Positions 11,557-32,750 of a stretch of DNA of 32,929 nucleotides are shown here, in pieces. The notes beneath the pieces were generated by a model, which worked only from the letters and a program-made list of their open reading frames with translations, had not been told where the DNA came from and ran no database searches. The translations under genes and the position numbers were made by a program. The stretch spans positions 1 to 32,929 of the forward strand of contig JADIIM010000039.1 in assembly GCA_015351705.1 (NCBI GenBank), given 5' to 3'. This DNA is from Aeromicrobium sp. (GTDB taxonomy: Bacteria; Actinomycetota; Coriobacteriia; Anaerosomatales; Anaerosomataceae). Each line of letters starts with the position of its first letter. Position 1 is the first letter of the stretch.

Positions 11557-11962
11557 GCCAACATCACCAGCGGTCACGCGGTCGATGCAGGGCAACCGCG
11601 GGAAGAACACCGAGCCGGAGCTGAAGCTTCGTCGGCTCCTCCGCGAGGCCGGCTACCCTGGCTACCGGCTCCACTGGAAGAAGGCGCCCGGTCGTCCGGA
11701 TGTCGCCTATCCCGGTCGGAAGGTCGCAATCTTCGTCAACGGCTGCTTCTGGCATCAGTGTCCGCATTGCCAGCCCGTGGCGCCCAAGAGCCATTCGGAG
11801 TACTGGCAGCGGAAGTTCGAGCTCAACCGGGAGCGCGACGAGCGGAAGCGACGGGAGCTCGAGGAGGCCGGGTGGACGGTGGTAACGGTGTGGGAGTGTG
11901 AGCTGAGGACAGCCGCTCCGAAGGTCGTCGATTCGCTGACAGGCCTACTCGAGATGCGCTAG
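11528..11962 (+). CDS. vsr: Very-short-patch mismatch repair endonuclease (Vsr)
   Basis: 144 residues, the usual Vsr length. Vsr nicks 5' of T in T:G mismatches that arise when 5-methylcytosine deaminates, and so accompanies C5 methyltransferases. Seen: MQGNRGKNTEPELKLRRLL (about 20-38), GRPDVAYPGRKVAIFVNGCFWHQCPHC (catalytic Asp, then the Zn-binding His/Cys group, about 58-84), and WTVVTVWECEL (about 117-127). The GTG at 11528, inside the methyltransferase gene, is preferred because GAAGGAAG precedes it and the family normally has about 20 residues before the RGK motif. The last 4 bases overlap the end of the convergent endonuclease gene. Confidence 0.93.
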   Translation: MPSQLGPIPEPTSPAVTRSMQGNRGKNTEPELKLRRLLREAGYPGYRLHWKKAPGRPDVAYPGRKVAIFVNGCFWHQCPHCQPVAPKSHSEYWQRKFELNRERDERKRRELEEAGWTVVTVWECELRTAAPKVVDSLTGLLEMR

Positions 11963-13305
11963 CTGTCTTCGGCATCCGCCAGTTGTTCGGCGAGATAGGA
12001 CTGATTCAGCCAGAACGACTTGCGGACCGCCAGGCTTCCACTCGGTGTAGACACAAGGTCGTGTCTATCGCGGCCGTGGGGCCGAACATGGCACATCTCG
12101 TTGTCACCACTTCCTGGCAGGTAGTCCGCCCTGTCCTCCCTGACCAACGCCACGGTCTGCTCGAAGCAATCACGCGCATGGACCTCGACATCATGCGTAG
12201 GCGGGGTCCAGAACTGAGTGCGCAAGAGTGTCGGCACGCCTTGTCTGTCGAGCTGATACACGACGAAGAGGAACCTGCGCATCAGTTGATCGCGAAGGTC
12301 CGAGTCCTCCCACCGCTGTTCAACGAGATCACAGTAGTCGAAAGCGGGGAACGAGACCGCCTCTTTGGGCGTGCCGCTCGGCCGGAGTCTGACGGTACGA
12401 ACGACCAGGTCCGCCTTCTCGAACTCGGCGACCTTCTTGTCGGCGGCTACACCCAGCATCCGCCTGGTCAGAACCGCATAGTAGTTCTTCGCACCTCGCT
12501 GGACCCGCACACCGAGCCTCGCAGCGATCTCGTCAGCGGTGAGCCCGATGAACGGCTTGAAGCGCTGATGCACGACATCCTCGAAAGTCGCACCAGAGCG
12601 GAGTTCGTCCGCGGACACAGCCGATTGGCGGTCCAGGCTGTCAGCGATGATCGAGTTCATGTAGCTTGCTTTGAGCGATAAGGCCCGGGGCTTCGCCGGC
12701 TCGGCGGAGAAGGGCTGCTCACGACGGTCCGCGCTCGTCGCCCCTTTGGTGCATGCGGCCAGATAGAGCGTATCGCCTTCGGACAACTCGTGAGCGCGCC
12801 CAGCGCGAACCTTCGCGACGATCTTCTCCCAGTCATCTCTGATGACCTCAAGATCGGCCTCAGGGAAGTCCCACAGTCGCACGATCTTGATCACGAAGTC
12901 GCGCGGGTCGCCCCCATCCTCATGCAGGTAGAACACCAGCAGCAGGTGCGCGTTCTTCCGAAGGAACGAGCTGCTCTCCCACTCCTCGGATACGACTGTC
13001 ATGTAGTCGATCATGCCGAGGACAAGCCGCTCCTTGGCGACGAGCCGCTTCCCCGACCGGCGAAGCGGTGTCGCCTTCAACTCGACTCCGGCGGCAGCGA
13101 AGTCAGGCTCGGGCCGACTGTTGGGTTCGTAGCCGAAGTAGTGTCGCTCCAAAGCGGTGCCGAAGCCGCCCTTGTGACCGGAGAAGTCGATCTTCGACGG
13201 GAGCGACTCGAGTACGTCTCGCAGGGAGTAGCCTACGAGCCTCTCAGCGTAGGCGACGATCGAGTCGCGGTCTTCCGGGTCGTATGGGAGTGATGGTTGA
13301 GACAT
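11959..13305 (-). CDS. Sau3AI-family type II restriction endonuclease
   Basis: 448 residues, similar to Sau3AI and LlaKR2I. Strong likeness in GGFGTALERHYFGYEPNS, PEPDFAAAGVELKATP, KERLVLGMIDY, AHELSEGDTLYLAACTKGA, RALSLKASYM and the C-terminal CHVRPHGRDRHD. Sau3AI has two MutH-like folds, the first catalytic and the second for allosteric DNA binding; the active site here would be Asp68, Glu75 and Lys77. The predicted target is GATC. The ATG at 13305 has GGAGG upstream; upstream in-frame starts add a non-homologous stretch. It is convergent with the methyltransferase-vsr operon, so protection and cutting are separately transcribed. All motifs look intact. Confidence 0.93.
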   Translation of the reverse strand: MSQPSLPYDPEDRDSIVAYAERLVGYSLRDVLESLPSKIDFSGHKGGFGTALERHYFGYEPNSRPEPDFAAAGVELKATPLRRSGKRLVAKERLVLGMIDYMTVVSEEWESSSFLRKNAHLLLVFYLHEDGGDPRDFVIKIVRLWDFPEADLEVIRDDWEKIVAKVRAGRAHELSEGDTLYLAACTKGATSADRREQPFSAEPAKPRALSLKASYMNSIIADSLDRQSAVSADELRSGATFEDVVHQRFKPFIGLTADEIAARLGVRVQRGAKNYYAVLTRRMLGVAADKKVAEFEKADLVVRTVRLRPSGTPKEAVSFPAFDYCDLVEQRWEDSDLRDQLMRRFLFVVYQLDRQGVPTLLRTQFWTPPTHDVEVHARDCFEQTVALVREDRADYLPGSGDNEMCHVRPHGRDRHDLVSTPSGSLAVRKSFWLNQSYLAEQLADAEDS

Positions 13306-13332
13306 CGCACCTCCGCAGACCAGGTTACACCA

Positions 13333-13373
13333 GTACCCCGCTCTCCCTGGGTACACACCCCTCCAGGGGGTGT
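13333..13373 (+). promoter_or_regulatory. Tandem hairpins covering the lipoprotein ribosome-binding site
   Basis: Two adjacent inverted repeats: GTACCC (13333-13338) with GGGTAC (13349-13354), and ACACCCC (13355-13361) with GGGGTGT (13367-13373). The second 3' arm contains the purine-rich ribosome-binding site of the gene starting at 13379, so the folded RNA would hide it. They could be a translational control element; no ligand class is recognised. Confidence 0.4.
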
Positions 13374-13378
13374 TCGTC

Positions 13379-13909
13379 ATGTCGCTTCGTCACATCTTGC
13401 TCGTCGCACTCGCGCTCGTCCTCGCCCTGGCCGCCGTCGGCTGCTCCTCGGACTCCGAACCGGCCGAGGACTCCTCGGCCACCGAACCCGCTGAGACCGA
13501 CGACGCCGGCGCAACCTCGGCAGAGTTCCGTGACCTGAGCTACCTCACCGGCACGTGGACGGTCACCACCGAGCTCGTGGAGATCGACAATCCCGCCATG
13601 ACAGCTGCGGCCGACCAGCCCGGCGCCACCTGGGAGTGCGTTGTCGCGGGGGACACGATGACGCTTGTCACCGAACGCCACGAGTACACCGGCACGCTGC
13701 GACCCGAGGCCGAGGGCGGATGGGTGTACGAGGCGTCGTCGACGTTCACCGATGAGGACGGCTACACCGTCACGAGCACGATCACCGTGAGCGGCAAACC
13801 GATCAGCGCGGACCTGGACGCGCTTGTCGGTGGCATGACCGGGACGATCGACACGCCTGATGGCCGCCTCTACACCGCGCGGTGGGACCTCGAGGGGCGG
13901 CGGCAGTAG
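13379..13909 (+). CDS. Small lipoprotein of unknown function
   Basis: 176-residue predicted lipoprotein: MSLRHILL start, hydrophobic segment, lipobox AAVGC near residues 18-22, then an acidic linker rich in Ser, Glu and Thr. The mature part (about 45-176) is Thr/Val/Tyr-rich and strand-like, including LTGTWTVTTELVEI, suggesting a single beta-barrel or sandwich domain exported to the cell surface, loosely like lipocalin-type proteins that carry a GTW near their N-terminus; that likeness is weak. ATG at 13379 is preceded by AGGGGGTG, which is paired in a predicted hairpin. It lies divergent from the Sau3AI-like gene; no functional link is evident. Confidence 0.65.
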   Translation: MSLRHILLVALALVLALAAVGCSSDSEPAEDSSATEPAETDDAGATSAEFRDLSYLTGTWTVTTELVEIDNPAMTAAADQPGATWECVVAGDTMTLVTERHEYTGTLRPEAEGGWVYEASSTFTDEDGYTVTSTITVSGKPISADLDALVGGMTGTIDTPDGRLYTARWDLEGRRQ

Positions 13910-16815: not shown

Positions 16816-17496
16816 CTAGTCCCCGAAAATCGGTCCGTCACGGTCGCCCGAGTTCGAGTACCCCCGGTCCTCCCAGTAGCCCCCGGGGTCCGGATCGGCA
16901 GAAAGCTCGATCCCCACGACCCACTTGCACCACTTGTACCCCCACTTGTCCTCGGCCACCAGCGCGAACGGGAACCCCCGCTCGGGAATCAGCGGTGCGG
17001 CGTTCATGCTGTGGGCGAGCAGGATGTCACGCTCGTAGAAGTACGCCACCGGGAACGACGTGGTGTAGCCATCGGCTGCCGAGAAGATGACACTCTGTGC
17101 CTCGGACTGCACGCCGGACGCGTCCAGGATGTCGCGCACGAGCACGCCGCCCCAGAGCACTCTGGCGCTCCAACCTTCCACGCAGTCCAGCTGCACGACC
17201 TTCTCGTAGGACGGGAAGCCGCTGGCCACCTCGGAGTACGCATACTCGGCCGGCGCGTCGACCAGCCCGGTGACCGCCAGCCGGTAGGTCTGGACGTCTA
17301 CCTGCTGGGGGCCCTTGATCGAGTTTTCGCGGAAATCGGTGACCGAGTCGAGCCGCTCGCCCTCGTACTCGCGGACCTCCACAGGCGGCAGTGGCGCGGG
17401 GCCGCCGTCTGCACCGGGAGTGTCGACCGTCGCCGCGCAGCCCGCGAGCGCGAGCGCGAGGCCGAAGATCGCGAGGAGCGTCACGCGGGTCATCAT
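16816..17496 (-). CDS. Molybdopterin-binding-domain lipoprotein (sulfite oxidase/YedY-like)
   Basis: 226-residue predicted lipoprotein. Seen: hydrophobic signal and lipobox LALAGC (about residues 15-20), Pro/Gly linker, then an oxidoreductase molybdopterin-binding fold: YRLAVTGLVDAPAEY, the Mo-ligand cysteine region QLDCVEGWSARVLWGG (about 102-117), ILDASG, the ADGYTTSFPV loop, and GFPFALVAEDKWGYKWCKWVVGIEL. Relatives (SuoX/MsrP/YedY) bind Mo-pterin through the conserved Cys; this short form lacks the dimerisation domain and a twin-arginine signal, so it would have to be exported by Sec and loaded with cofactor outside, or not bind it. Electron partner and substrate unknown. A stand-alone gene. 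Confidence 0.8.
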   Translation of the reverse strand: MMTRVTLLAIFGLALALAGCAATVDTPGADGGPAPLPPVEVREYEGERLDSVTDFRENSIKGPQQVDVQTYRLAVTGLVDAPAEYAYSEVASGFPSYEKVVQLDCVEGWSARVLWGGVLVRDILDASGVQSEAQSVIFSAADGYTTSFPVAYFYERDILLAHSMNAAPLIPERGFPFALVAEDKWGYKWCKWVVGIELSADPDPGGYWEDRGYSNSGDRDGPIFGD

Positions 17497-19875: not shown

Positions 19876-20592
19876 TCAGGCGACCAGTACGCCTTTGGCC
19901 GACTGGAACGCGGCCCGCAACCCCTCGAAGGAGAGCTCCGGCATCTCGAGCGTCGCGGTTCTCCGGCCCATCTCTTCGAGCGAATGCGAGTCCGACGATG
20001 AGATGTGCGCGATGGCAAGACCATCGCGAAAGCGGCTCCGGCACGAACGGTCGATCAGTTCGATCGCCGAGATGTGCGGACTCTCTGCCAGATGATGCAC
20101 GAGCTGGGAGTCCATGAAGCAGTAGTCGCCGAACGTCCGGTCCACGTGACCGACGTGGCACAGGCCACCGAGTGCATCGATAGCCCGAGCGACCTCCAGG
20201 GGATCGCTGTCCACTGCAAGGTGCGGCAAGTCATCAAGTGGTGCGGCAGGGTCTGGAAGACCGAGGATGCCCAGAAGCGCGCCGAATCTGATCTCCGACA
20301 TCCGCTGAGGGAACAGCGCCACCAGGTGGGTCTCCTCGCCAGCATGTCGCACACGGATCTCCGCTCCAGGAAGAACCAACAGGTTGCGCCCGGTCTCTGC
20401 ACGTGCCTGCTCTGCCGCTTCGAGCAGGCGCGGCGCGTATGCGACACTGAAGTGATCCGCGATCCCGAGCACATCGATACCGACCTCGATGGCACGCTCG
20501 ACGATCTGACGCGGAGTCGTTGCCGCATCCCCCCGGTAGTCACTGGGGATCAACGGTGTGTGGTTGTGCAGATCGACGGTGTAGCGTTGCAC
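19876..20592 (-). CDS. PHP-domain phosphoesterase
   Basis: 238 residues of the PHP (polymerase and histidinol phosphatase) fold, a trinuclear-metal phosphoesterase. Seen: VDLHNHTPL (His-x-His, about residues 7-15), GIADHFSVAY (about 43-52), GAEIRV (about 76-81), LCHVGHVDR (about 144-152) and the late SSSDSHSLEEMG metal motif (about 199-210). Members include histidinol-phosphatases, nucleotidases and exonuclease-like enzymes; substrate cannot be assigned. It starts 6 bases after the DsrE-like gene on the same strand, so they are almost surely one operon, divergent from the reductase gene at 21044. Confidence 0.85.
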   Translation of the reverse strand: MQRYTVDLHNHTPLIPSDYRGDAATTPRQIVERAIEVGIDVLGIADHFSVAYAPRLLEAAEQARAETGRNLLVLPGAEIRVRHAGEETHLVALFPQRMSEIRFGALLGILGLPDPAAPLDDLPHLAVDSDPLEVARAIDALGGLCHVGHVDRTFGDYCFMDSQLVHHLAESPHISAIELIDRSCRSRFRDGLAIAHISSSDSHSLEEMGRRTATLEMPELSFEGLRAAFQSAKGVLVA

Positions 20593-20598
20593 AGGGGC

Positions 20599-20937
20599 CT
20601 ACCCGATCGTCACGATCGCATCAGGACCGCAGGCCGCAGCCACGAGCGACGGCATGTCGCCAGCCTCGCCCACAGCGAGTGCATCGGTCAACCCGAAGTG
20701 CTTCAGACACGTGCCACAGGCGCGGAGGGTGACACCCGCCTCGGCAAGCATGCGGAGCTCGTCAAGCGCGTCGGAACCCTCGCATGCGAGTCTCACGCCA
20801 TCATTGACGAACATCACGGCCGCCGGCCGCTGCTCCTCATGCGCAAGCGATACCAGGAAGCTCCGCATCAGGATGGCGCCGAGCTCCTTATCGGAGCTAC
20901 CGAGCGTGTCGCTGGTGATCAGGATCCTCTTGGACAT
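20599..20937 (-). CDS. YedF-like DsrE-family protein (lacks the TusA domain)
   Basis: 112 residues. The whole protein matches the C-terminal DsrE domain of the selenium-metabolism protein YedF: ILITSDTLGSSDKELGAILMRSFL, AVMFVNDGVRLACEGSD, LRACGTCLKHFGLTDALAVGE. YedF normally has a TusA-like sulfurtransferase domain before this; here it is missing. A cysteine pair is present in CGTC (about residues 83-86). A sulfur or selenium carrier or redox role is inferred from the family. ATG at 20937 chosen because homology starts at once and a GGAG lies upstream. First gene of an operon with the PHP gene, with a promoter region shared divergently with the reductase at 21044. Confidence 0.85.
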   Translation of the reverse strand: MSKRILITSDTLGSSDKELGAILMRSFLVSLAHEEQRPAAVMFVNDGVRLACEGSDALDELRMLAEAGVTLRACGTCLKHFGLTDALAVGEAGDMPSLVAAACGPDAIVTIG

Positions 20938-20981
20938 GGTCGCTCCTGTCCTGCTTCGGATGATGCCGTGCGAGCACATGC

Positions 20982-21003
20982 ACTATACTGATACCTTGTA
21001 TCA
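20982..21003. promoter_or_regulatory. Divergent promoter region with palindromic operator
   Basis: Overlapping -10 elements on both strands: TATACT (20984-20989, plus) and TATAGT (minus, 20982-20987). Next to them is TGATAC-CTT-GTATCA (20989-21003), a perfect 6-bp-arm inverted repeat. It sits at the start site for the plus-strand reductase gene and between -10 and -35 for the dsrE-PHP operon, so one repressor could silence both. No strong -35 on either side. Confidence 0.5.
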
Positions 21004-21043
21004 CATCTGTCTATTCTGAAGTCACCCGACGCCGGGAGCTTTC

Positions 21044-22225
21044 ATGACACCAACCAAGAACGAGGCCACCCTCGCAAGCCTCATCGACTGGTTCGCCGAG
21101 GAGTCCGATTGGGCGCGTGTTGCCTTCAAGGAAGCCAAGGACGCGGGCCGCACCGTCATCGGCGTTTACTGCGGGTTCATGCCGAGCGAGCTGATCCGCG
21201 CAGCTGGGGCGATACCCGTCTCTTTGTGCGGGAATAGCGCCGAAGCGATGCTTGCGGCCGAGGTCGACCTGCCTCGGGCGTTCTGTCCGCTCATCAAGTC
21301 GTCCTACGGCCTGGCCATCACCGACACCTGCCCGTTCTTCCACTTCTCCGATGCGCTCATCGGTGAGACCACCTGCGACGGCAAGAAGAAGATGTTCGAG
21401 CTGCTCAAGGAGTACAAGCCCGTCCACGTCATGCAGCTTCCATTCTCCGGCGCTGCCGCGGACGAGCCGGCTCTCTCCTGGTGGCTCGGCGAGGTCAAGA
21501 GAGTCGCCACCTTCGTGGAGGAGGTCACCGGCACGACGATCACCGACGAGGCGCTGCGCGCTACGATCCGCACCACGAACGAGATCTCGGACCTGCTCAG
21601 GCAGGTCGCCTCGTACTTCGCCGAGGACGACCCGCCGATGACGTGGACCCAGATGCTGATCGTGCAGGACCTCGGCTGCTTCGTCGTAGAGACCGACGAG
21701 TATGCCGAGCGATTGCGCGAGCTGGTCTTCGTCCTCGAAGCCATCGCTGCCGAGCGACGCGCCGCTCCCCGCACGCGCGGACGCCGCCCGAGGCTGACGG
21801 TCACTGGAACCCCGATGTCGCCCGACACGAACAAGGTCATGCGTATCGCCGAGGAGGCCGGCGCGGACGTCGTCTGTCATGACGGCTGCAGCGGCGTGAA
21901 GATGCACGACCGCCGGATCGACGAGACGGGCGACCCCTACGAAGCGCTCGCTCGCTACACGCTCGGCATCCCGTGCGCCTGCATGAGCCCCAACCGTGGA
22001 CGCACCGAACTGCTGCATCGCACCGTGGACACTTACCGCGTGGAGGGTGTCATCGACACCGTCTGGCAGTGCTGCCACACGTTCAACGTGGAGTCCGTGG
22101 AGGTGGGCCGGTACACGCGCGACGTGCTCGGCCTGCCGTATCTGAAGCTCGAGACCGACTACTCGGAGTCGGACCTCGGACAGCTTCGGACGCGCATCGA
22201 GGCCTTCGTGGAGCAGATGCTCTAG
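21044..22225 (+). CDS. Double-cubane-cluster-type reductase 1 (2-hydroxyacyl-CoA dehydratase superfamily)
   Basis: 393 residues of the HgdB/BcrB-BcrC/DCCP superfamily. Five cysteines, Cys43, 62, 81, 96 and 111, occur with the spacing 19-19-15-15, exactly as in reductase 2 (28027-29307). They lie in YCGFMPSELIRAAGA, VSLCGNS, FCPLIKSSYG, TCPFFHFSD and GETTCDGKKKM. The last motif is characteristic. Later CACMSPNRGR and WQCCHTF also match. Double-cubane proteins receive electrons from an ATP-dependent activase and reduce small molecules at very low potential. This copy has no activase in its own transcript, so it probably uses the one at 27267. ATG with CGGGAG upstream. Ends 6 bases from the importer operon, convergently. 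Classical 2-hydroxyacyl-CoA dehydratase is less likely since no second subunit, CoA-transferase or racemase genes occur. Confidence 0.85.
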   Translation: MTPTKNEATLASLIDWFAEESDWARVAFKEAKDAGRTVIGVYCGFMPSELIRAAGAIPVSLCGNSAEAMLAAEVDLPRAFCPLIKSSYGLAITDTCPFFHFSDALIGETTCDGKKKMFELLKEYKPVHVMQLPFSGAAADEPALSWWLGEVKRVATFVEEVTGTTITDEALRATIRTTNEISDLLRQVASYFAEDDPPMTWTQMLIVQDLGCFVVETDEYAERLRELVFVLEAIAAERRAAPRTRGRRPRLTVTGTPMSPDTNKVMRIAEEAGADVVCHDGCSGVKMHDRRIDETGDPYEALARYTLGIPCACMSPNRGRTELLHRTVDTYRVEGVIDTVWQCCHTFNVESVEVGRYTRDVLGLPYLKLETDYSESDLGQLRTRIEAFVEQML

Positions 22226-22231
22226 GGCGCT

Positions 22232-23374
22232 TCAGATGTGCTGGTCGTGGTGTGCCGCCGAGCCGGGCCGGCGCCGTGCCCAGCCGGTGACCACGAGTGC
22301 GATGCAGATCGTCCCGTAGGTGACGAAGCTCCGGAAGTACTCGCCGATCGCCGGGCTGCCGGTGATCGCCTGGCCCGCGAGCGGGGAGAGCAGGAACATC
22401 CAGTGGAACACCGCGATGCCGATCAGCGCGTTGCGCACGCTCGCCCGCTTGACCGTGGCGCCGCCCGCCAGCAGCGCAGCGCCTGCCAGGAAACCGACAC
22501 TTCGGTGCGCCGTGTACGTGTTCATCATCCCGACACTCTGCACGTAGATGACCTGAGACAGTGCCGCTAGCGACGTCGACAGCATTATGGCCCGCCGCTT
22601 GATCGCCACCGGATCGAGCCCCGCCAACATGGCCGAGCGCGGGTCGAGGCCGACGGCCTTGAACTGCTGCCCGGTCCGGCTCTTGAGCAGCGCGAGTACG
22701 AGCGCGGCGACGATCAGCACGAACACGATGGTCGCAAGCGGGAAGTACCCCAGCCCGATCTTGACCGGTATGAGCCTGTCCAGGACGTTGCGGAACGCAA
22801 CGAAGTCGATCGTGTCGCGCAGCCCCATCCCACGCGAGAGCACCATCTCCTCGCTGCCGGCCGGCCAGATCGTCCCGTAGCCGACCATCAGGACGAGACG
22901 GTAGATGCCGTCAGCAAGGAAGCCGAGGACGATGCCGACGATCATCTCACGACCAGGCGCACGCTGCAGGCACCAGGCGATCAGCCGTCCGGTCAGCATG
23001 CCGAGCCCCACGCCCACCAGCGCGGCGAATCCGATACCGCTCAGCCCATGGAGCCCGAGATCGTTCGCGATGATCAGGCCGATCTGTCCGCCGATGGCTC
23101 CGATGACGACGGCGAAGTTGAGTCCGAGTCCCGCAACGACCGGGATGACGAGCGCGAGCGCCATGATGGCGTCCCGCGAGAAGCGCGTGGCAACCTCGGA
23201 GAAGACGAACAGGCCGGGGACGCCCGCATACTCGAACTCGATGATCGCGAGCACGACAAAGATCGCGGGGACGATCGCCTCCCGCAGGTACGGGTTCTCC
23301 CACACACGCGCGACCGCCGGGTGAAGTCGGGCTGGCGGAGCGTCGGTCACTCGTGACCGCCCGCGCGCGCTCAC
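22232..23374 (-). CDS. ABC transporter permease 2 (BPD_transp_2 family)
   Basis: 380 residues, last gene of the operon, GTG start overlapping the previous permease stop as GTGA. A multi-pass membrane protein with about 8-10 hydrophobic segments. The glycine-rich VVAGLGLNFAVVIGAIGGQIGL and GVGLGMLTGRLIAW regions and the LDPRSAMLAGLDPVAIKRR coupling region are typical of the RbsC/BmpA-type importer permeases (branched-chain amino acid, ribose and nucleoside classes). With the first permease it should form the membrane channel; the substrate follows the DUF3798 binding protein and is unknown. A possible alternative start is the GTG before TDAPPARLH. Confidence 0.88.
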   Translation of the reverse strand: MSARGRSRVTDAPPARLHPAVARVWENPYLREAIVPAIFVVLAIIEFEYAGVPGLFVFSEVATRFSRDAIMALALVIPVVAGLGLNFAVVIGAIGGQIGLIIANDLGLHGLSGIGFAALVGVGLGMLTGRLIAWCLQRAPGREMIVGIVLGFLADGIYRLVLMVGYGTIWPAGSEEMVLSRGMGLRDTIDFVAFRNVLDRLIPVKIGLGYFPLATIVFVLIVAALVLALLKSRTGQQFKAVGLDPRSAMLAGLDPVAIKRRAIMLSTSLAALSQVIYVQSVGMMNTYTAHRSVGFLAGAALLAGGATVKRASVRNALIGIAVFHWMFLLSPLAGQAITGSPAIGEYFRSFVTYGTICIALVVTGWARRRPGSAAHHDQHI

Positions 23375-24423
23375 GAGTCTGCCCTTTCGGGCTGCTCGCG
23401 CCGGGATCCGCGGACCATCGCGTACAGGATCACGCCGTTGGTGACGAGAACGCGCGTGATGTCCGAGAGCTCCGAGATGAGCAGCTCGTTGGCGATCGGG
23501 GTCGAGAAGACCAGGATCGCGTTGAACAGCAGCGCTCCGAGCAACGCATGGGACGCCGACGCTCGTGTGCCGCGCATGTAGCCACCCACAAGGATCGCAG
23601 CCGCCGCGGGGAAGGCCATCATCAGCGGAGCGTCATAAAGCTGCAGGAACCCGTAGGTATGCGCATAGAGCACGATCCCAACGGCAGCGATCACCGTCGA
23701 CGCTACGACCGCGACCGACTTGAGCCGCTCGACGTCCGTCCCGGACACGCGCGCGAACCGCTCGTTCTCAGCGGCGATGACGGCCGCTCTGCCTTTCAGA
23801 GTGCGCTGGTACACCAGGAGGCAGACTGCCACGAACAGGACGACCAGCAGCGTGCCCGTAGGGACGCGCACGCCGAGCACGGTGAACGAGCCGAGCGAGT
23901 CGAGCACATGGCCGAACCACTCGGTGAGGTTAGTCTGCGGGCGCAGTCCCTTGCCGCCGATCGGCCACAGCATCTGCGGATTGGTGAACGGCGCGGTCCC
24001 CCAAAGGATTGCCGCGAGGTAGACAGCAGAGAACCCGGCGAATGTGCCGACGACCTCCTCGTTGCTGCGCACCCGCCGAAGCAGCCACGCGTAACCGAGA
24101 CCGACGGGCACTGCCAGCGCTACCGAGAAGATCACGGCCACCGCAAGTCCCACAAGTCCCGTCATCCGCAGTTCGAGTGCGAGGACCATCCCGAGGAGTC
24201 CTGGCAACACGCACAGAGGCAGACCGTAGTTCATACCAACGCCCGCGCGGAGCATCGGCACCAGCGAGAGGACGAGCACGCCGTTCATGGCTACACGTAC
24301 CAGCGAGTCACCGAGAAGCCCCGGCACGGGCAGGCCGAGCGTGACGGCCGCCACGACCATCGCAAGCAGGAAGAAGATGACCACCGCCTGCGCCGGGGGA
24401 ATGCGAGAGAGAACCCCCTTCAT
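23371..24423 (-). CDS. ABC transporter permease 1 (BPD_transp_2 family)
   Basis: 350 residues. Hydrophobic segments run through the protein from residue 12 (AVVIFFLLAMVVAAVTLGL). Glycine-rich RAGVGMNYGLPLCVLPGLLGMVLAL and the cytoplasmic GTDVERLKSVAVVAS region are typical of the RbsC-like family. ATG at 24423 overlaps the ATPase stop by ATGA; the stop overlaps the start of permease 2. Together the two permeases probably form a heterodimeric pore with the tandem ATPase below it. A much longer upstream in-frame reading exists inside the ATPase gene but is antihomologous. Confidence 0.88.
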   Translation of the reverse strand: MKGVLSRIPPAQAVVIFFLLAMVVAAVTLGLPVPGLLGDSLVRVAMNGVLVLSLVPMLRAGVGMNYGLPLCVLPGLLGMVLALELRMTGLVGLAVAVIFSVALAVPVGLGYAWLLRRVRSNEEVVGTFAGFSAVYLAAILWGTAPFTNPQMLWPIGGKGLRPQTNLTEWFGHVLDSLGSFTVLGVRVPTGTLLVVLFVAVCLLVYQRTLKGRAAVIAAENERFARVSGTDVERLKSVAVVASTVIAAVGIVLYAHTYGFLQLYDAPLMMAFPAAAAILVGGYMRGTRASASHALLGALLFNAILVFSTPIANELLISELSDITRVLVTNGVILYAMVRGSRREQPERADS

Positions 24424-25976
24424 GCGCTTCTCCGGTGCGAGGCCAGCGCGACCTCGATCGCGATGATGTCGAACGGCGGCGAGAATTCGTCGGCGATGAC
24501 ACCGTCCTTGAGCGTGATGATGCGGTCGCACACGCGCACGAGTTCGGCGATCTCGCCCGAGACGACGAGCACAGCCACGCCCTCGGAGGCGACTTCGACG
24601 AGCGACGTCAACAGTCGCTCCTTCGCGGAGATGTCGATACCGCGGGTGGGCTCGGCGACGATCAGCGCCCGCGGACCCTGCATCAGTGCACGGGAGAACG
24701 CGACCTTCTGCTGGTTCCCGCCGGACAGCTCCCCTACCGGCTGACGCGCCGATGCGCACCTGACATCGAAGCGCTCGAGATACGGCTCGCTCGCCTCGAT
24801 CATCGCCCGGTCCGACAGGACACCGCGTCCCGGGAGTCGGGGCCAGCGGGTGAAGCGCCCGGCCGTGTACGCTGACGGCCAGCACACGTTGAGCGCCACA
24901 GACTCGCCGAGTGCAAGCCCAACGCCTCTGCGCTCCTCGTGCACCAGGACGAGTCCGGCCGAAAGCGCGGAGCCCGCATCGCCCGGTACGATCATTCGGC
25001 CATCCACGTCCACCTCGCCGCGGGCAGGAAACAGCCCGGTGAGCCCCGCGACCAGTGCGAGCCTGCCCATACCCGCGAGCCCCGTGAGACCGACGATCTC
25101 CCCGCGGCGAACCATCACATCCAGACCGCAGAGCGGATCACCGGGCATGTCGACGTGCAGGTCCGTGATCTCAAGACACGCCTGGTCGCACGCGCCCCTC
25201 TCCGCACGGATCGGGGGGTCTTCGTCTCGGCCGACCATGAGCGCCGCAAGACCCCGGGGGTCGGCGTCTTCCGCGAGCAGCCGCCCGACCACGCGGCCTT
25301 CGCGCAGAACCGTGATCCTGTCGGAAGCCTCGATCACCTCATCGAGCCGGTGCGAGACGAACACGACGGCCGCCCCGGCCGCCGCTGCGGCCCTGGCCAC
25401 GCTCACAAGCGAAGCCGCCTCCTGGGTGGATAGCGCCGCACTCGGCTCATCGAGGATGAGCACTTTGAGCTCTGTCCGGGCGAACTGCCGCGCGGCCTCG
25501 ACGATCTGCCGGGCGCCCATTGGAAGATCGCCCACGCGATCATCAGGCCCGAACGAGGCGTTGAACCGAGAGAGTACCTCCGCTGTGATCGCCCGCATCG
25601 CGGCCCGGTCCAGCGGGGCCAGAGGATGCCGCGCCCGGACAGCCTCCCTGCCGAGTGTGACGTTCTCGGCGACGGTCATGCCCTCGATCAGCGACAACTC
25701 CTGGTGAACCAGACCCACCCCCGCAGCGAGCGCTTCACTCGGCGAGCAGAACTGGACGGGCGCGCCGTCGAGTTCGATGACACCCTCGTAGCCGCCGGTC
25801 TCTGCGATCGCCGGGCTGCCCGCGAGTATCGCGGCAAGCGTGCTCTTACCCGAGCCGTTCTCGCCCACCAGAGCGTGTACCTCGCCTCGTTCGAAGGTGA
25901 TGTCCACGCTATCGAGCGCAAGCGTCGCCCCGAAGCGCTTGGTCAGGGCCTCGACTCGCAGAGCCGGCACAGCCAT
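24420..25976 (-). CDS. Tandem-domain ABC importer ATPase (RbsA/MglA type)
   Basis: 518 residues with two ABC domains in one chain, as in RbsA/MglA. Domain 1 (about 1-245): Walker A GENGSGKS (about 38-45), signature region LPMGARQ in place of LSGGQ, Walker B LKVLILDEPSAAL. Domain 2 (about 260-518): degenerate P-loop GLTGLAGMGRLAL, intact signature LSGGNQQKV, Walker B-like ALIVAEPTRGID. One of the two nucleotide sites is therefore expected to be weak, as in other members. ATG at 25976 has GGGAAGGG upstream. Energises import for the DUF3798 system. A 30-bp palindrome lies between this gene and the preceding binding-protein gene. Confidence 0.92.
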   Translation of the reverse strand: MAVPALRVEALTKRFGATLALDSVDITFERGEVHALVGENGSGKSTLAAILAGSPAIAETGGYEGVIELDGAPVQFCSPSEALAAGVGLVHQELSLIEGMTVAENVTLGREAVRARHPLAPLDRAAMRAITAEVLSRFNASFGPDDRVGDLPMGARQIVEAARQFARTELKVLILDEPSAALSTQEAASLVSVARAAAAAGAAVVFVSHRLDEVIEASDRITVLREGRVVGRLLAEDADPRGLAALMVGRDEDPPIRAERGACDQACLEITDLHVDMPGDPLCGLDVMVRRGEIVGLTGLAGMGRLALVAGLTGLFPARGEVDVDGRMIVPGDAGSALSAGLVLVHEERRGVGLALGESVALNVCWPSAYTAGRFTRWPRLPGRGVLSDRAMIEASEPYLERFDVRCASARQPVGELSGGNQQKVAFSRALMQGPRALIVAEPTRGIDISAKERLLTSLVEVASEGVAVLVVSGEIAELVRVCDRIITLKDGVIADEFSPPFDIIAIEVALASHRRSA

Positions 25977-25998
25977 GAAGAGCCCTTCCCTGTTCTGT

Positions 25999-26028
25999 GG
26001 GGCCGTCGGCATCGATGCCGACGGCCCC
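25999..26028. repeat. 30-bp perfect palindrome inside the operon
   Basis: 15 bases (GGGGCCGTCGGCATC) immediately followed by their exact complement, lying in the 78-base gap after the binding-protein stop. In the RNA it gives a very GC-rich hairpin. No U-run follows, so it is more likely an mRNA stabiliser or attenuator giving more binding protein than transporter, as in malE-malF, than a terminator. Confidence 0.75.
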
Positions 26029-26054
26029 CAATGCTCGTACCATCCTGTGCGCGA

Positions 26055-27209
26055 CTAGTAGATGATCGAATCCATGATGATCATGTAGTAGTTGTCGTAG
26101 CCCATGTACTCATCGAACTCGACCTCGACACCGGAGATGTCCTGGGCCATGGCGGCCAGGGCGGCCGGGTCACGGCTGTCGAACCCGTTCTCGATCATCT
26201 CCTTGGCGATCTCCACACCGAACTCGGGGAAGAACACGCCGAGCGGGATCGGCCACGTTGACATGCGGCCCGTCTGACCCGCAGCGGCGACCTTGTCACC
26301 AATCTGGTTGTTGATGTCGGTGACATCGAAGCTGGCATCAGCGGGAACCTCGATGCCAAGTGCCGCAGGGTAGCCCTGCGTGGGCGTGGGGCAGCACTGC
26401 TCGGGCATGATGCCGCCGGCCTTCATGACTTCAGCGATGATGACTTCCTGCATGCCGCAGTTGCTGCCGAAGATGGCTGTGTCCTTGCCGTACTTCTCGA
26501 ACTGCTTGGGCAGGTCCTCGCGGAGGAACTGCTGCATCGCGGGCGCGCCATCCGAGGTCGGGTCCGGGGTCATGATGAGCACGAACTCCATGCCACGCTT
26601 GGCACACTCGGCCTCCATGACGTCCTTGCGCTTGGCGAGCAGCTCCTTGGCCATGTGGCTCGGGAAGGAGTAGTGGATGAACGTCTTAGCGCCCATGTCG
26701 GCCGCCTTGTTGACGATGTTCTCCCCGCGACGGACGGCGTCGGTGTCCAGAGCAAGGTCGACGTACTTGGCCATCTGATCGGGGTCGTCCCAGATCGGCG
26801 CGGTGATGACGATCATGTCCGGCCGCTGTTCCTTAACCTTCTGGATGGCGGGCAGGATACCGGTGTAGCCTGCCGCAATCACGATCGCCTTGACCTCGGG
26901 ATCGGCACCCAGGCTCTGGATCTGCGAGAGCGCGGTCTCCTGCTCGGCCGTGAAATCCTCCGGCAGCACGATGTGCTTGATCATGTCGCCATACTTGGCG
27001 ACGACCTTCTCGCCGCCGCGGTACTCGTCCTCTGAAGCCGAGAACGCTGGCGACACCACCCCGATCTTGTACGCGGCAACGTGCTCCTCGGCCGCACCTT
27101 CGCCTCCGGACTCAGCCGGTGTGTCCTCGGCGCAGCCAAGCACCGGAGCCACCGCGAGTGCCAGCACCAATGCCAGCGAACCCGCCTTCAACCACCATCT
27201 GCCGGTCAT
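26055..27209 (-). CDS. DUF3798 substrate-binding lipoprotein
   Basis: 384 residues. Signal and lipobox VLGC with Cys26, then an acidic linker. The mature region is a periplasmic-binding-protein-like fold of family DUF3798: YKIGVVSPAFSASEDEYRGGEKVV (about 47-70), TALSQIQSLGADPEVKAIVIAAG, GAKTFIHYSFPSHMAKELLAKRKD, TPDPTSDGAPAMQQF and GSNCGMQEVIIAEVMKAGGIMPEQCCPTPTQGYPAALGIEV. The Cys-Cys pair in PEQCCPTP is noteworthy. Its ligand is unknown; the family has no settled function. ATG at 27209 with a strong GGGAGGG. It follows the activase gene after 57 bases and belongs to the reductase operon, so its ligand is plausibly a substrate of the reductases. Confidence 0.85.
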   Translation of the reverse strand: MTGRWWLKAGSLALVLALAVAPVLGCAEDTPAESGGEGAAEEHVAAYKIGVVSPAFSASEDEYRGGEKVVAKYGDMIKHIVLPEDFTAEQETALSQIQSLGADPEVKAIVIAAGYTGILPAIQKVKEQRPDMIVITAPIWDDPDQMAKYVDLALDTDAVRRGENIVNKAADMGAKTFIHYSFPSHMAKELLAKRKDVMEAECAKRGMEFVLIMTPDPTSDGAPAMQQFLREDLPKQFEKYGKDTAIFGSNCGMQEVIIAEVMKAGGIMPEQCCPTPTQGYPAALGIEVPADASFDVTDINNQIGDKVAAAGQTGRMSTWPIPLGVFFPEFGVEIAKEMIENGFDSRDPAALAAMAQDISGVEVEFDEYMGYDNYYMIIMDSIIY

Positions 27210-27266
27210 AAAACCCTCCCTCTTGCGTGAACGACTATCACAAGCAGCCCGTGATCCCGGACCGCG

Positions 27267-28022
27267 CTAACCCCCACCCGAACCCTCCGCACTCAGCGCC
27301 GCACCGTACGCCCCCACGATCTGGGCCTCGTCTGGGACCCAGACCTCGCCTGCGAAGCCATCGGCGATAAGCGTCACCATCGCAGGGTTCTTGGCCACCC
27401 CACCGGCGAACACGAGCGGACCGCGCGCATTCACCCTCTTGAGCGAACCAAGCGTGCGCTTGGCTATCGACTCGTGCAGACCACGGGCGATCCGCCTGCG
27501 GTCCTCGCCTCGGTGCACAAGCCCCGTGACCTCGCTTTCCGCGAAGACGGTGCACATGCTCGAGATGGCGACGCCGCTCTCGGCGGCGAGAGCGGCGTCC
27601 GCCATCTCCTGGAGGGAGAAGCCCAGCGCACGCGCCATGACCTCAAGGAACTTGCCGGTTCCTGCGGCGCACTTGTCGTTCATCTCGAAGTCGGTGATCT
27701 TCCCGCCGGATCCAAGAGCGATCACCTTCGTGTCCTGGCCACCGATGTCGAGCACGGCAGCAGCGGCCGGGAAGAGCGCCGATGCGCCCATGCCGTAAGC
27801 GGTGATCTCGGTCACCGCTGAACCTCCGAACCGCTCCCTGGCGGCATGACGACCGTAGCCGGTGGACACGATCGCATCATGCGCATCACGACCCACGAAG
27901 TCGGTCGCGGCAGAACCGGGATCGAATCCAGAATCGGCCACGGCCCAGTCCACGATCCGGCCGTCCTCGAGCCAGACCGCGTCAACGCTGCGGGAACCGA
28001 TGTCTAGGCCGAGTATCCGCAT
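27267..28022 (-). CDS. ATP-dependent activase (HgdC/BcrA-D/DCCP-reductase type)
   Basis: 251 residues, ASKHA ATPase fold. As a dimer it holds one [4Fe-4S] cluster and, with ATP hydrolysis, pushes electrons to a partner at very low potential. Seen: phosphate-1 LGLDIGSRSVDAVWLEDG (about 4-21), phosphate-2 AVLDIGGQDTKVIAL (about 89-103), cluster ligands Cys118 (NDKCAAGTGKF) and Cys157 (SSMCTVFAESE), and the adenosine motif VFAGGVAKNPAM. All key residues intact. It starts 4 bases after reductase 2 and precedes the binding-protein gene, firmly part of one operon. It should serve reductase 2 and, since no second activase is here, probably reductase 1 too. Confidence 0.93.
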   Translation of the reverse strand: MRILGLDIGSRSVDAVWLEDGRIVDWAVADSGFDPGSAATDFVGRDAHDAIVSTGYGRHAARERFGGSAVTEITAYGMGASALFPAAAAVLDIGGQDTKVIALGSGGKITDFEMNDKCAAGTGKFLEVMARALGFSLQEMADAALAAESGVAISSMCTVFAESEVTGLVHRGEDRRRIARGLHESIAKRTLGSLKRVNARGPLVFAGGVAKNPAMVTLIADGFAGEVWVPDEAQIVGAYGAALSAEGSGGG

Positions 28023-28026
28023 GCGT

Positions 28027-29307
28027 CTACAGCATCTCCAAGAAGGCCTCGACGCGTGTAGCGAGCTGCCCGACGTCCTCCATCGAGTAGTCCGTAGTGA
28101 TCTTCAGTACCGGGAGGCCGGCATCGCGCACCGCAGTCTCCACGCTGTGCGACTCCATCTCGTACAGCCCGCAGAACTGCAGCGAGTAGTCGATCACGCC
28201 GTCTACCTTCAGCTCCTGGGCCATGCGGACGACGTCCTCGATGCGGCCGTCGTTGGGCGTGAAGCAGGCGCAGTTGATGTCGAGGTACTTCGCGGCGATG
28301 TCATCGAGCATGTCATCAACCGTGTCAGCACTCTCAGAGACCAGGTCCTGGTAGTAGCGGCTGCCGGTGCACATCTCCTCGCCAACCACCACAGCACCGG
28401 CCTTCTCGATGATGTCGTGGAGCTTCCAGTTGGGGAGCGCCATCGGGGTGCCGGTCACGAGGATCCGCTTGGCGCCCTTCGGCGTCACGCCCTCGCCCGA
28501 GGCGACGCGCTGCTCGAGCTCATCGGCAAGCGCGTTCATCATCTGGGTGAAGCGCGGCACGTCGTCGTAGAAGGCCACCTGCGTGGCGAGTAGCCGGTCC
28601 TTGCCGCTGATCGGCGCCGGGTCTGCAGCACATGCGGCCGCGATTCGCTGCAACGCTCGCCGCTTGTCGTTGACCTCGATGATGGCCGCGCGAAGGCTCT
28701 CGGCGGTGATGGTGTTGCCGGTGGTCTCCTCGGCCTTGTGTACCAGCTCGACGATCTCAGCGCGCCAGGCCGCCATGTCCTGCTCCCGCTTCATCTGCGG
28801 CAGCTCCATGACCCAGACGTTGTGCAGGTCGCCGAGGAGTTCGTAGGCCTTCTTCTTGCCGTCACACGTGGTCTCGCCGATGACGAGGTCCGCCGACTCG
28901 AAGTACGGGCATACCTTGGCGAGCTTGAAGCCCATGAACGACTTGATGAGCGCGCAGGTGTTGCGCGGCATGATCTGCTCCACCTGGTCGTAGGCGAACT
29001 CGGCGCCGGCACACAGGCCCACGCACCAGCCACCCGCCGCGCGGATGATCTCCTCGGGGACGTACAGGCAGAATGTGCCGAAGACCTTACCGCCGCTCTT
29101 ACGGAAATCGTCGAGCTCCTTGATGCGCAGACCGTGGACCTCGCTCATCACGAAGTTGAGGTAGTCCATGCCTGCGGGCCGGTTGTCCTGCGTGAGGTAC
29201 GCGTCTCCGAACAGCTGGCCCACCGCGCCGAGAAGCGCGTCGTGCGTGGGAAGATCGAGCCCGAGATCGGCCCACATCTGGTGATAGTCCACAGCCTGGT
29301 CACTCAT
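28027..29307 (-). CDS. Double-cubane-cluster-type anaerobic reductase 2
   Basis: 426 residues, first gene of the minus-strand operon. Cysteine ligand candidates Cys80 (GTFCLYVPEE), Cys99 (GLCAGAEFA), Cys118 (PRNTCALIKSF), Cys133 (KVCPYFES) and Cys148 (GETTCDGKKKAYELL), plus Cys95 and later CACFTPNDGR and QFCGLYEME. The spacing 19-19-15-15 equals that of reductase 1. The combination GxFCxxxPEE...GLCAGAEF...NTCALIKSFMGFK matches annotated double-cubane-cluster-containing anaerobic reductases rather than benzoyl-CoA reductase. Such a protein carries an [8Fe-9S] double cubane and needs an ATP-driven activase, here 4 bases downstream. It has about 37 more N-terminal residues than reductase 1. Substrate unknown. 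Confidence 0.88.
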   Translation of the reverse strand: MSDQAVDYHQMWADLGLDLPTHDALLGAVGQLFGDAYLTQDNRPAGMDYLNFVMSEVHGLRIKELDDFRKSGGKVFGTFCLYVPEEIIRAAGGWCVGLCAGAEFAYDQVEQIMPRNTCALIKSFMGFKLAKVCPYFESADLVIGETTCDGKKKAYELLGDLHNVWVMELPQMKREQDMAAWRAEIVELVHKAEETTGNTITAESLRAAIIEVNDKRRALQRIAAACAADPAPISGKDRLLATQVAFYDDVPRFTQMMNALADELEQRVASGEGVTPKGAKRILVTGTPMALPNWKLHDIIEKAGAVVVGEEMCTGSRYYQDLVSESADTVDDMLDDIAAKYLDINCACFTPNDGRIEDVVRMAQELKVDGVIDYSLQFCGLYEMESHSVETAVRDAGLPVLKITTDYSMEDVGQLATRVEAFLEML

Positions 29308-31861: not shown

Positions 31862-31919
31862 CTTCACGTGACGTTTGTCCGGTCGGCGCGTGCCGCCGAC
31901 GCCCGTGACAGGAGGCCCG

Positions 31920-32750
31920 ATGCACCCCAACGCGCTGCGCGCACTGCTCGAATCCGTCGCCGAGGGCGCAACCAGTCCCGCCGACGCCCTCGACCGCCTC
32001 GCGACGCTGCCCTTCGCCGACATCGAGGACGCGAAGGTCGATCACCACCGCGCACTCCGGTGCGGGTTCGCCGAGGTGGTCTTCTGCCAGGGCAAGAGCG
32101 CGGCACAGGTGCGCTCCATCGCCCGCGAGATGCTCGACCATGGCGACGTCTTCCTCGGCACGCGCGCCACCGCCTCGCACTTCCAGTCCGTCGCGCAGGT
32201 CGCCTTCGACGCCCGCTACTTCGAGAAGCCGCAGCTCATCGTCGTCGACCGGCGTGAGCAGCGCCCATCAGTGGGCCACATCGTGGTGGCGACCGGCGGC
32301 ACCGCTGATCATGCCGTGGCCGAGGAGGCCGCCATCTCGGCCGAGGTGATGGGCAACCGCGTGACGCGGCTGTACGACGTGGGCGTGGCCGGGGTCCACC
32401 GGCTGCTCGCCCACGCCGAGGTGCTGCGCGACGCCAACGTCATCATCGCCGTGGCCGGGATGGAAGGAGCGCTTCCCTCCCTCGTCACCGGGCTCGTGTC
32501 GTGCCCGGTGGTGGCCGTTCCCACGTCGATCGGTTACGGCGCGAGCCTCGGCGGCATCGCCGCGCTGCTGGGCATGCTGAACTCGTGTGCCTCGGGCATG
32601 GGCGTGGTCAACATCGACAACGGCTTCGGGGCCGCAGCACTCGCCAGCCGCATCAACCAGGCGGTCGTCGGGACGCATGCCGAGGAGGCAGGCGTCGCGT
32701 CCCTGGCCGAGGCGCCCGCATGTGACACCACCGGCGACGAGTCCGCATGA
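31920..32750 (+). CDS. larB: Nickel-pincer cofactor biosynthesis protein LarB
   Basis: 276 residues. LarB carboxylates and hydrolyses the pyridinium ring of nicotinic acid adenine dinucleotide in the first step of the nickel-pincer nucleotide cofactor used by lactate racemase LarA and related enzymes. It belongs to the AIR carboxylase (PurE) superfamily. Seen: N-terminal helical region to about residue 60, VDHHRALRCGFAEVVFCQGKSAAQV, HIVVATGGTADHAVAEEAA (about 120-138), GNRVTRLYDVGVAGVHRLL, AVAGMEGALPSLVTGLV, VAVPTSIGYGAS and GVVNIDNGFGAA. The ATG at 31920 has GGAGG upstream and begins the family homology; the upstream in-frame stretch is not conserved. Overlaps larC by ATGA. Confidence 0.95.
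   Translation: MHPNALRALLESVAEGATSPADALDRLATLPFADIEDAKVDHHRALRCGFAEVVFCQGKSAAQVRSIAREMLDHGDVFLGTRATASHFQSVAQVAFDARYFEKPQLIVVDRREQRPSVGHIVVATGGTADHAVAEEAAISAEVMGNRVTRLYDVGVAGVHRLLAHAEVLRDANVIIAVAGMEGALPSLVTGLVSCPVVAVPTSIGYGASLGGIAALLGMLNSCASGMGVVNIDNGFGAAALASRINQAVVGTHAEEAGVASLAEAPACDTTGDESA

What the first reader, a model, noticed from the sequence alone, without database searches (positions are those of the whole stretch)
19876..29307. Candidate system: substrate importer wired to double-cubane reductases
One operon encodes a double-cubane-type reductase, its ATP-driven activase, a DUF3798 binding lipoprotein, a tandem ATPase and two permeases. A second reductase, a YedF-like DsrE protein and a PHP enzyme adjoin. 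No dehydratase partner subunit, CoA-transferase or CoA-ligase genes appear. A solute-specific importer physically linked to such reductases implies that an external small molecule is taken up and reduced at very low potential, a respiratory or nutrient-scavenging pathway I cannot match to a described one.
Basis: partly seen in the sequence, partly recalled or inferred. Interest (0 to 1): 0.88.

Follow-up and report, generated by a model that had tools for sequence, protein, structure and literature searches.

The report
Importer wedged between double-cubane reductases
An anaerobic bacterium carries an uptake system of unknown cargo built into a gene cluster for powerful iron-sulfur reductases whose natural job is unknown; the same pairing recurs in two other phyla, so the importer's cargo is a good lead to what these reductases act on.

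Summary
Window 29307-22232 (-) holds a double-cubane cluster protein (DCCP-A), its activase, a DUF3798 lipoprotein, a tandem ATPase and two permeases. A second DCCP (DCCP-B, 21044-22225 +) converges on them, followed by a YedF-type DsrE protein and a PHP protein. Genome comparison splits this into two layers. DCCP-A/activase/YedF/PHP is the host order's own core cluster; a relative has activase and YedF only 3 bp apart. The importer and DCCP-B are extra, sitting exactly between activase and YedF. In five relatives a SAO (selenocysteine-assisted organometallic) importer cassette occupies this place, beside the same kind of DCCP-B. Most DUF3798 importers have no DCCP neighbour. All nine DCCP-linked ones (Actinomycetota, Desulfobacterota, Bacillota) fall in one DUF3798 clade, and none of 104 sequences outside it is linked. 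The clade is paired with at least two distinct DCCP lineages, which argues for function rather than chance. The binding protein has a sugar-receptor-type fold but three near-invariant cysteines. Best reading: uptake, then ATP-driven low-potential reduction, of a soft (S-, Se- or metal-bearing) compound. The ligand and the reduction are inferred, not shown.

The parts
28027..29307 (-). DCCP-A, double-cubane cluster protein (426 aa), host core copy
   Evidence: NF040772 494 bits; C. hydrogenoformans DCCP 6eno/7yyl E 1e-147; 53% identity to 6eno, all eight family-invariant Cys kept; 89% to same-family genome G363
27267..28022 (-). Activase (ATP-driven reductase of DCCP, BadF/CoA_E_activ type)
   Evidence: PF01869 160 bits, TIGR00241 213 bits; 4 bp after DCCP-A
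26055..27209 (-). DUF3798 substrate-binding lipoprotein
   Evidence: PF12683 371 bits; 3qi7 homolog; AlphaFold2 pLDDT 91.8, type I periplasmic binding fold Z 18.9; near-invariant C251, C272, C273
24420..26012 (-). Tandem (double-domain) ABC ATPase, RbsA/XylG type
   Evidence: PF00005 two stretches; NCBIfam best hits sugar-type importers, all below their cut-offs
23371..24423 (-). Permease A, PF02653
   Evidence: PF02653 53 bits; start ATG overlaps ATPase stop
22232..23374 (-). Permease B, PF02653
   Evidence: PF02653 47 bits
21044..22225 (+). DCCP-B, second double-cubane cluster protein (393 aa), convergent to importer
   Evidence: NF040772 435 bits; clade with DCCPs beside SAO cassettes, 100/100; all eight invariant Cys kept
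20599..20979 (-). YedF-like DsrE protein (C-terminal half of YedF, CGTC motif); likely start at 20937
   Evidence: TIGR03527 116 bits, profile 85-193 of 194; host core ortholog next to activase in relatives
19876..20592 (-). PHP-domain phosphoesterase, host core neighbour
   Evidence: PF02811 36 bits; conserved next to the core cluster without importer
20980..27266 (.). Extra segment (importer + DCCP-B) relative to the ACT-YedF junction of relatives
   Evidence: In L122 (G303) activase and YedF are 3 bp apart; the same interval holds a SAO cassette + DCCP-B in L116 and L117

Best explanation
This is a dedicated uptake-and-reduce module grafted onto a resident double-cubane reductase cluster. 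The DUF3798 lipoprotein catches a small, soft (sulfur-, selenium- or metal/metalloid-bearing) molecule, probably with its conserved cysteines, and the ABC importer brings it in. Inside, the activase uses ATP to push electrons at very low potential into DCCP-B (and/or DCCP-A), which reduces the imported compound; YedF then handles the released chalcogen. Shown here: the genes, the clade-specific linkage in three phyla, pairing with at least two DCCP lineages, and occupation of the place that a SAO importer fills in relatives. Inferred: the ligand class, the reduction step, the role of YedF, and which DCCP does the work.
For: All importer-bearing members of one DUF3798 clade (9 of 9, in Actinomycetota, Desulfobacterota, Bacillota) adjoin a DCCP, and 0 of 104 other DUF3798 sequences do (loci). 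In Desulfobacterota the order is activase-DCCP-DUF3798-ATPase-permease-permease. The window's DCCP-B is not from the DCCP lineage that accompanies DUF3798 elsewhere (p-AU 3e-6), but from the SAO-adjacent lineage (100/100), so the importer clade associated with DCCPs at least twice. In the order, SAO cassettes (5 of 69 genomes) and the DUF3798 importer (1 of 69) occupy the same place beside DCCP-A/activase and a DCCP-B. SelD and/or YedF lie beside the module in several Desulfobacterota loci, and the host has a SelD with an in-frame TGA. The binding protein has near-invariant Cys251, Cys272 and Cys273; they are lost in C. difficile-type orphans that lack a transporter.
Against: No ligand, enzyme assay or expression data exist here. 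The cysteines are common to the whole DUF3798 importer family, most of which has no DCCP nearby, so the importer's cargo need not be a DCCP substrate. Bacillota linked loci show no selenium genes nearby. The profile alignment to RbsB that would place the cysteines in the pocket is not significant, and no coordinates were available to measure distances. DCCP-A and its activase exist without any importer in many relatives.
Confidence: 0.5

Rival explanations
1. Neighbours by insertion only: the importer landed in an insertion-prone site between activase and YedF and has nothing to do with the reductases; it imports an ordinary nutrient.
For: DCCP-A/activase/YedF/PHP exists without importer in many relatives; most DUF3798 importers have no DCCP neighbour; the site accepts different cassettes.
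Against: The same DUF3798 clade sits next to DCCPs in two other phyla, with a different DCCP lineage. SAO cassettes at the site also come with DCCP-B.
Confidence: 0.2
2. Supply rather than substrate: the importer brings in a metal, selenium compound or cofactor needed to build or feed the DCCP system or selenoproteins, and DCCP reduces something else made inside the cell.
For: SelD, YedF or HesB/IscA-type genes lie beside several linked loci; the binding protein has a three-cysteine signature; the host has a UGA-containing SelD gene.
Against: Core DCCP-A/activase clusters work without this importer in many genomes, so it cannot be a general maturation need. No selenium genes lie beside the Bacillota linked loci.
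Confidence: 0.15
3. Detoxification variant of SAO: the module scavenges or disarms an organometallic or metalloid compound (mercury, arsenic), with the DCCP as reductive demethylase or dehalogenase-like enzyme.
For: It sits where SAO (with MerB-like SaoL, efflux SaoE and, in two genomes, hgcAB) sits in relatives. The SAO literature proposes metal or metalloid substrates (PMC13188914).
Against: The window has no MerB-like lyase and no SaoE-type efflux pump, and the genome has no SaoX or hgcA.
Confidence: 0.15

Closest known systems
Double-cubane cluster protein (DCCP) and its reductase, Carboxydothermus hydrogenoformans (6eno, 7yyl; Jeoung & Dobbek 2018)
   Same: Family model over cut-off for both proteins, 53% (A) and 35% (B) identity, all eight invariant cysteines, adjacent ATP-driven activase.
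   Different: Here two DCCPs of different lineages flank an importer; cluster and activity not shown.
SAO (selenocysteine-assisted organometallic) system (Haft & Gwadz 2023, known here through PMC13188914 and NCBIfam models)
   Same: An ABC importer associated with DCCPs at the same place in sister genomes; its binding proteins SaoB/SaoX carry CU/UxP motifs, compared here with QCCPxP in DUF3798.
   Different: None of SaoA/B/P/X/L/E/T/D is in the window and SaoX is absent from the genome; the importer is of another superfamily (RbsA-type ATPase, PF02653 permeases); the second DCCP is retained.
Ribose/xylose/AI-2-type importers (RbsABC, LsrACDB)
   Same: Type I binding fold, tandem ATPase, PF02653 permeases.
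   Different: All sugar equivalog models score below their cut-offs; three near-invariant cysteines in the binding protein; unknown ligand.
Selenium-linked DCCP/activase clusters (Lin et al. 2015 PMC5322559; mlp gene clusters, Kountz & Balskus PMC10418091)
   Same: HGD-D protein and activase neighbouring YedF/SelD; proposed selenium or methyl-selenide metabolism.
   Different: No Sec lyase, DUF3343 or corrinoid methyltransferase in the cluster; a DUF3798 importer is present.
2-hydroxyacyl-CoA dehydratases / benzoyl-CoA reductases
   Same: Same PF06050 superfamily and activase type.
   Different: No alpha/beta subunit pair or CoA-activating enzyme; scores far below those equivalog cut-offs.

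Membership tests
Double-cubane cluster protein (NF040772) | Scores over the curated family cut-off | tested here: met
   494 and 435 bits against cut-off 350
Double-cubane cluster protein (NF040772) | Invariant cysteines of the family conserved | tested here: met
   Eight Cys columns invariant in 79 sequences including both window proteins and 6eno
Double-cubane cluster protein (NF040772) | [8Fe-9S] cluster and ATP-dependent reduction | not testable with these tools
   Needs protein chemistry
SAO system | SaoA/B/P/X importer and SaoL/E/C/T/D genes | tested here: not met
   Absent from the cluster by gene content; SaoX not in own genome
DUF3798 family (PF12683) | Full-length match over gathering score | tested here: met
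   371 bits, profile 1-271 of 271
RbsABC-type sugar importer (functional class) | Type I binding fold, tandem ATPase, PF02653 permeases | tested here: met
RbsABC-type sugar importer (functional class) | Sugar ligand | not testable with these tools
   All named sugar models below their cut-offs; ligand unknown
YedF selenium protein (TIGR03527) | TusA-like N-terminal plus DsrE C-terminal domain | tested here: not met
   Only profile 85-193 of 194 matched, 116 bits against cut-off 110; N-terminal TusA domain missing
2-hydroxyacyl-CoA dehydratase / benzoyl-CoA reductase | Two different PF06050 subunits adjacent and co-oriented, equivalog score | tested here: not met
   Scores 20-116 bits against cut-offs of 420-700; the two PF06050 genes are 6 kb apart on opposite strands

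The most novel reading that the evidence does not exclude
The DUF3798 ligand is the natural substrate (or its direct precursor) of double-cubane reductases: a conserved, transferable import-and-reduce pathway for a thiophilic S-, Se- or metal-bearing small molecule, distinct from SAO but able to take its place at the same chromosomal site.
Probability: 0.35. Interest if true: 0.82.

Novelty: new variant of a known kind. Interest (0 to 1): 0.62.

Why it matters
From general knowledge, double-cubane proteins were characterised in 2018 with a nitrogenase-like cluster but no known physiological substrate, and DUF3798 is a binding-protein family without a ligand. A clade-specific, repeated coupling of the two means that finding what one soluble binding protein binds would give a direct lead to the reductase substrate. 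The place shared with SAO (and, in two relatives, hgcAB) also ties the question to organometal and selenium biology.

Tried and rejected
1) Family-wide DUF3798-DCCP linkage: rejected. A first scan of 78 loci found only two; sampling showed the link is confined to one clade. Independence of the Tissierella DCCP is not shown (p-AU 0.11). 3) A conserved fifth importer gene hinting at the cargo: none found among neighbours of the unlinked importers. 4) Selenocysteine in DUF3798: no in-frame stop in any match scored. 5) Placing the cysteines in the ligand pocket by profile alignment to RbsB: the aligned stretch puts SNC(251) on QND of RbsB, but the match is not significant (probability 0.35%); kept as a lead only. 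6) Foreign base composition of the importer: GC 0.63-0.68 is like its surroundings, not informative. 7) Riboswitch or terminator hints: no Rfam hit, terminator-like sites at chance level. 8) Literature: only two held papers mention DUF3798, neither about this; Haft & Gwadz 2023 and the DCCP papers are not held, so a mention there cannot be excluded.
Full report
What is there. On the minus strand, 29307 to 22232, lie a double-cubane cluster protein (DCCP-A), its activase, a DUF3798 lipoprotein, a tandem ABC ATPase and two PF02653 permeases, with gaps of 4, 57 and 42 bp and then 4-bp overlaps. A second, different DCCP (DCCP-B; 35% identical to A) runs the other way at 21044-22225 and stops 6 bp from the last permease. 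Beyond it are a YedF-type DsrE protein and a PHP protein. Both DCCPs pass the curated DCCP model (494 and 435 bits, cut-off 350) and keep all eight cysteines invariant in 79 family members including 6eno. They are not paired dehydratase subunits, and the genome has no other full PF06050 gene.

Two layers. In relatives of the same order and family, pheA-DCCP-A-activase-(YedF)-PHP-iPGM with larB nearby is a conserved core without any importer. In genome G303 the activase and YedF genes are 3 bp apart. DCCP-A is 89% identical to a same-family copy. So DCCP-A, activase, YedF and PHP are resident; the importer and DCCP-B (about 6.3 kb) are extra, lying exactly between activase and YedF. Only this genome of 69 in the order, and of 296 sampled in the phylum, has a DUF3798 gene, so the importer is probably acquired.

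The same place in sisters. In five genomes of the order (G321, G313, G322, G381, G363) the stretch between the activase and a DCCP-B holds a SAO cassette. In L116 seven genes pass their SAO models (SaoD, L, A, P, B, X, E), and an HgcA passes its own (404 bits, cut-off 275) beside an HgcB-like ferredoxin; the other four loci were assigned by similarity to these. SaoX passes its cut-off in exactly these five of 69 genomes and is absent from the window's genome, as is hgcA. The window's DCCP-B belongs with the DCCP-Bs of these SAO loci (100/100). Among the genomes listed, a second DCCP of this kind was seen only where an importer cassette is present. DCCP-B therefore looks like the importer-bound reductase, DCCP-A the resident one.

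How general is DUF3798 with DCCP? A first scan gave 78 loci: the four-gene importer is conserved, but only two, both Desulfobacterota, had a true DCCP beside it. Scanning whole genomes for DCCP then showed second DUF3798 copies beside DCCPs in Tissierella and an Acidaminobacter MAG. Sampling of the class of Desulfoprunum (258 genomes) and the class of Tissierella (391 genomes) completed the picture. In a tree of 117 DUF3798 sequences all nine linked ones lie in one clade (support 100) together with four C. difficile-type orphans that have no transporter; none of the other 104 is linked (0 of 500 label shuffles as clustered). In the Desulfobacterota loci read in full the order is (activase)-DCCP-DUF3798-ATPase-permease-permease, and YedF and/or SelD lie close by in several. 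The DCCPs next to DUF3798 form their own clade (7 of 8 at 100/100); the window's DCCP-B is excluded from it (p-AU 3e-6). The importer clade has thus met at least two DCCP lineages, which is hard to explain by chance.

What the binding protein says. The AlphaFold2 model is good (pLDDT 91.8) and is a type I periplasmic binding protein: 3qi7 (C. difficile, 'putative transcriptional regulator') Z 43.9, then glucose/xylose, AI-2 and rhamnose receptors at Z about 18-19. Near-invariant Cys251 and Cys272-Cys273 (70-72 of 77 sequences) are replaced in the C. difficile orphans. By motif they fall where sugar receptors have the N-D of 'NDxMA' and the D of 'GFDG', but the formal profile alignment is not significant, so pocket placement is inference. 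A thiophilic ligand or a redox-active disulfide would explain them. SAO binding proteins are reported with CU/UxP motifs proposed as metal ligands (PMC13188914).

Selenium context. YedF is a selenium marker (PMC5322559), and that paper's table links a 2-hydroxyglutaryl-CoA dehydratase-type protein and an activase to YedF/SelD. DCCP genes are noted in methyl-selenide gene clusters (PMC10418091). The host has a SelD gene with an in-frame TGA. The window's YedF lacks the TusA half.

Mechanism proposed. Uptake of a soft S-, Se- or metal-bearing small molecule, then ATP-driven low-potential reduction by activase plus DCCP-B (possibly DCCP-A), with YedF downstream. Shown: anatomy, clade-specific conserved linkage, repeated association, place shared with SAO. 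Inferred: ligand, chemistry, which DCCP acts, physiological purpose. Main rivals: unrelated insertion; supply of a metal or selenium compound rather than substrate; organometal detoxification.

Novelty. Not a SAO member (tested, not met), not a CoA-dehydratase or benzoyl-CoA reductase. It is a new variant of the known theme 'importer plus double-cubane reductase'. No held paper describes DUF3798 with DCCP, but the key SAO and DCCP papers could not be read.

Noticed in passing
L116 178-15846 (G381) and L117 3217-18928 (G363): A SAO cassette that also contains hgcA/hgcB-like mercury-methylation genes, a second activase (688 aa) and an HGD-D-like protein (405 aa), and a NifU-like protein, all between DCCP-A/activase and DCCP-B.
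   Followed up: partly
L288-L294 (Desulfobacterota); probably L044, L047 (Anaerolineaceae): Fused tandem DUF3798 proteins (about 780-865 aa in Desulfobacterota, two domains in one frame); the Desulfobacterota ones are not near an importer ATPase, permease or DCCP.
   Followed up: partly
L062-L064, L239; PDB 3qi7: C. difficile-type DUF3798 orphans: no transporter, cysteines lost, yet they group in the DCCP-linked clade on a long branch; the PDB entry calls the protein a transcriptional regulator.
   Followed up: partly
window 10249-13380: C-5 cytosine DNA methylase (+) next to a MutH-domain (Sau3AI-like) protein (-): looks like a restriction-modification pair.
   Followed up: no
window 8725-10125: Schlafen AlbA_2 / HATPase_c_4 regulator-like protein near the methylase-MutH pair.
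   Followed up: no
window 16816-17496: Small secreted-looking protein with a molybdopterin oxidoreductase (sulfite oxidase-type) domain.
   Followed up: no
window 31875-32750: LarB (nickel pincer cofactor biosynthesis), conserved near the DCCP-A core in relatives.
   Followed up: no
order of the window genome, 69 genomes: hgcA over cut-off in 36 of 69 genomes of the order, but not in the window's genome: many putative mercury methylators in this group.
   Followed up: no
L171 14410-15099: TudS-related putative desulfidase (CD3072 family) and an amino-acid-type ABC importer directly upstream of the activase-DCCP-DUF3798 operon.
   Followed up: no
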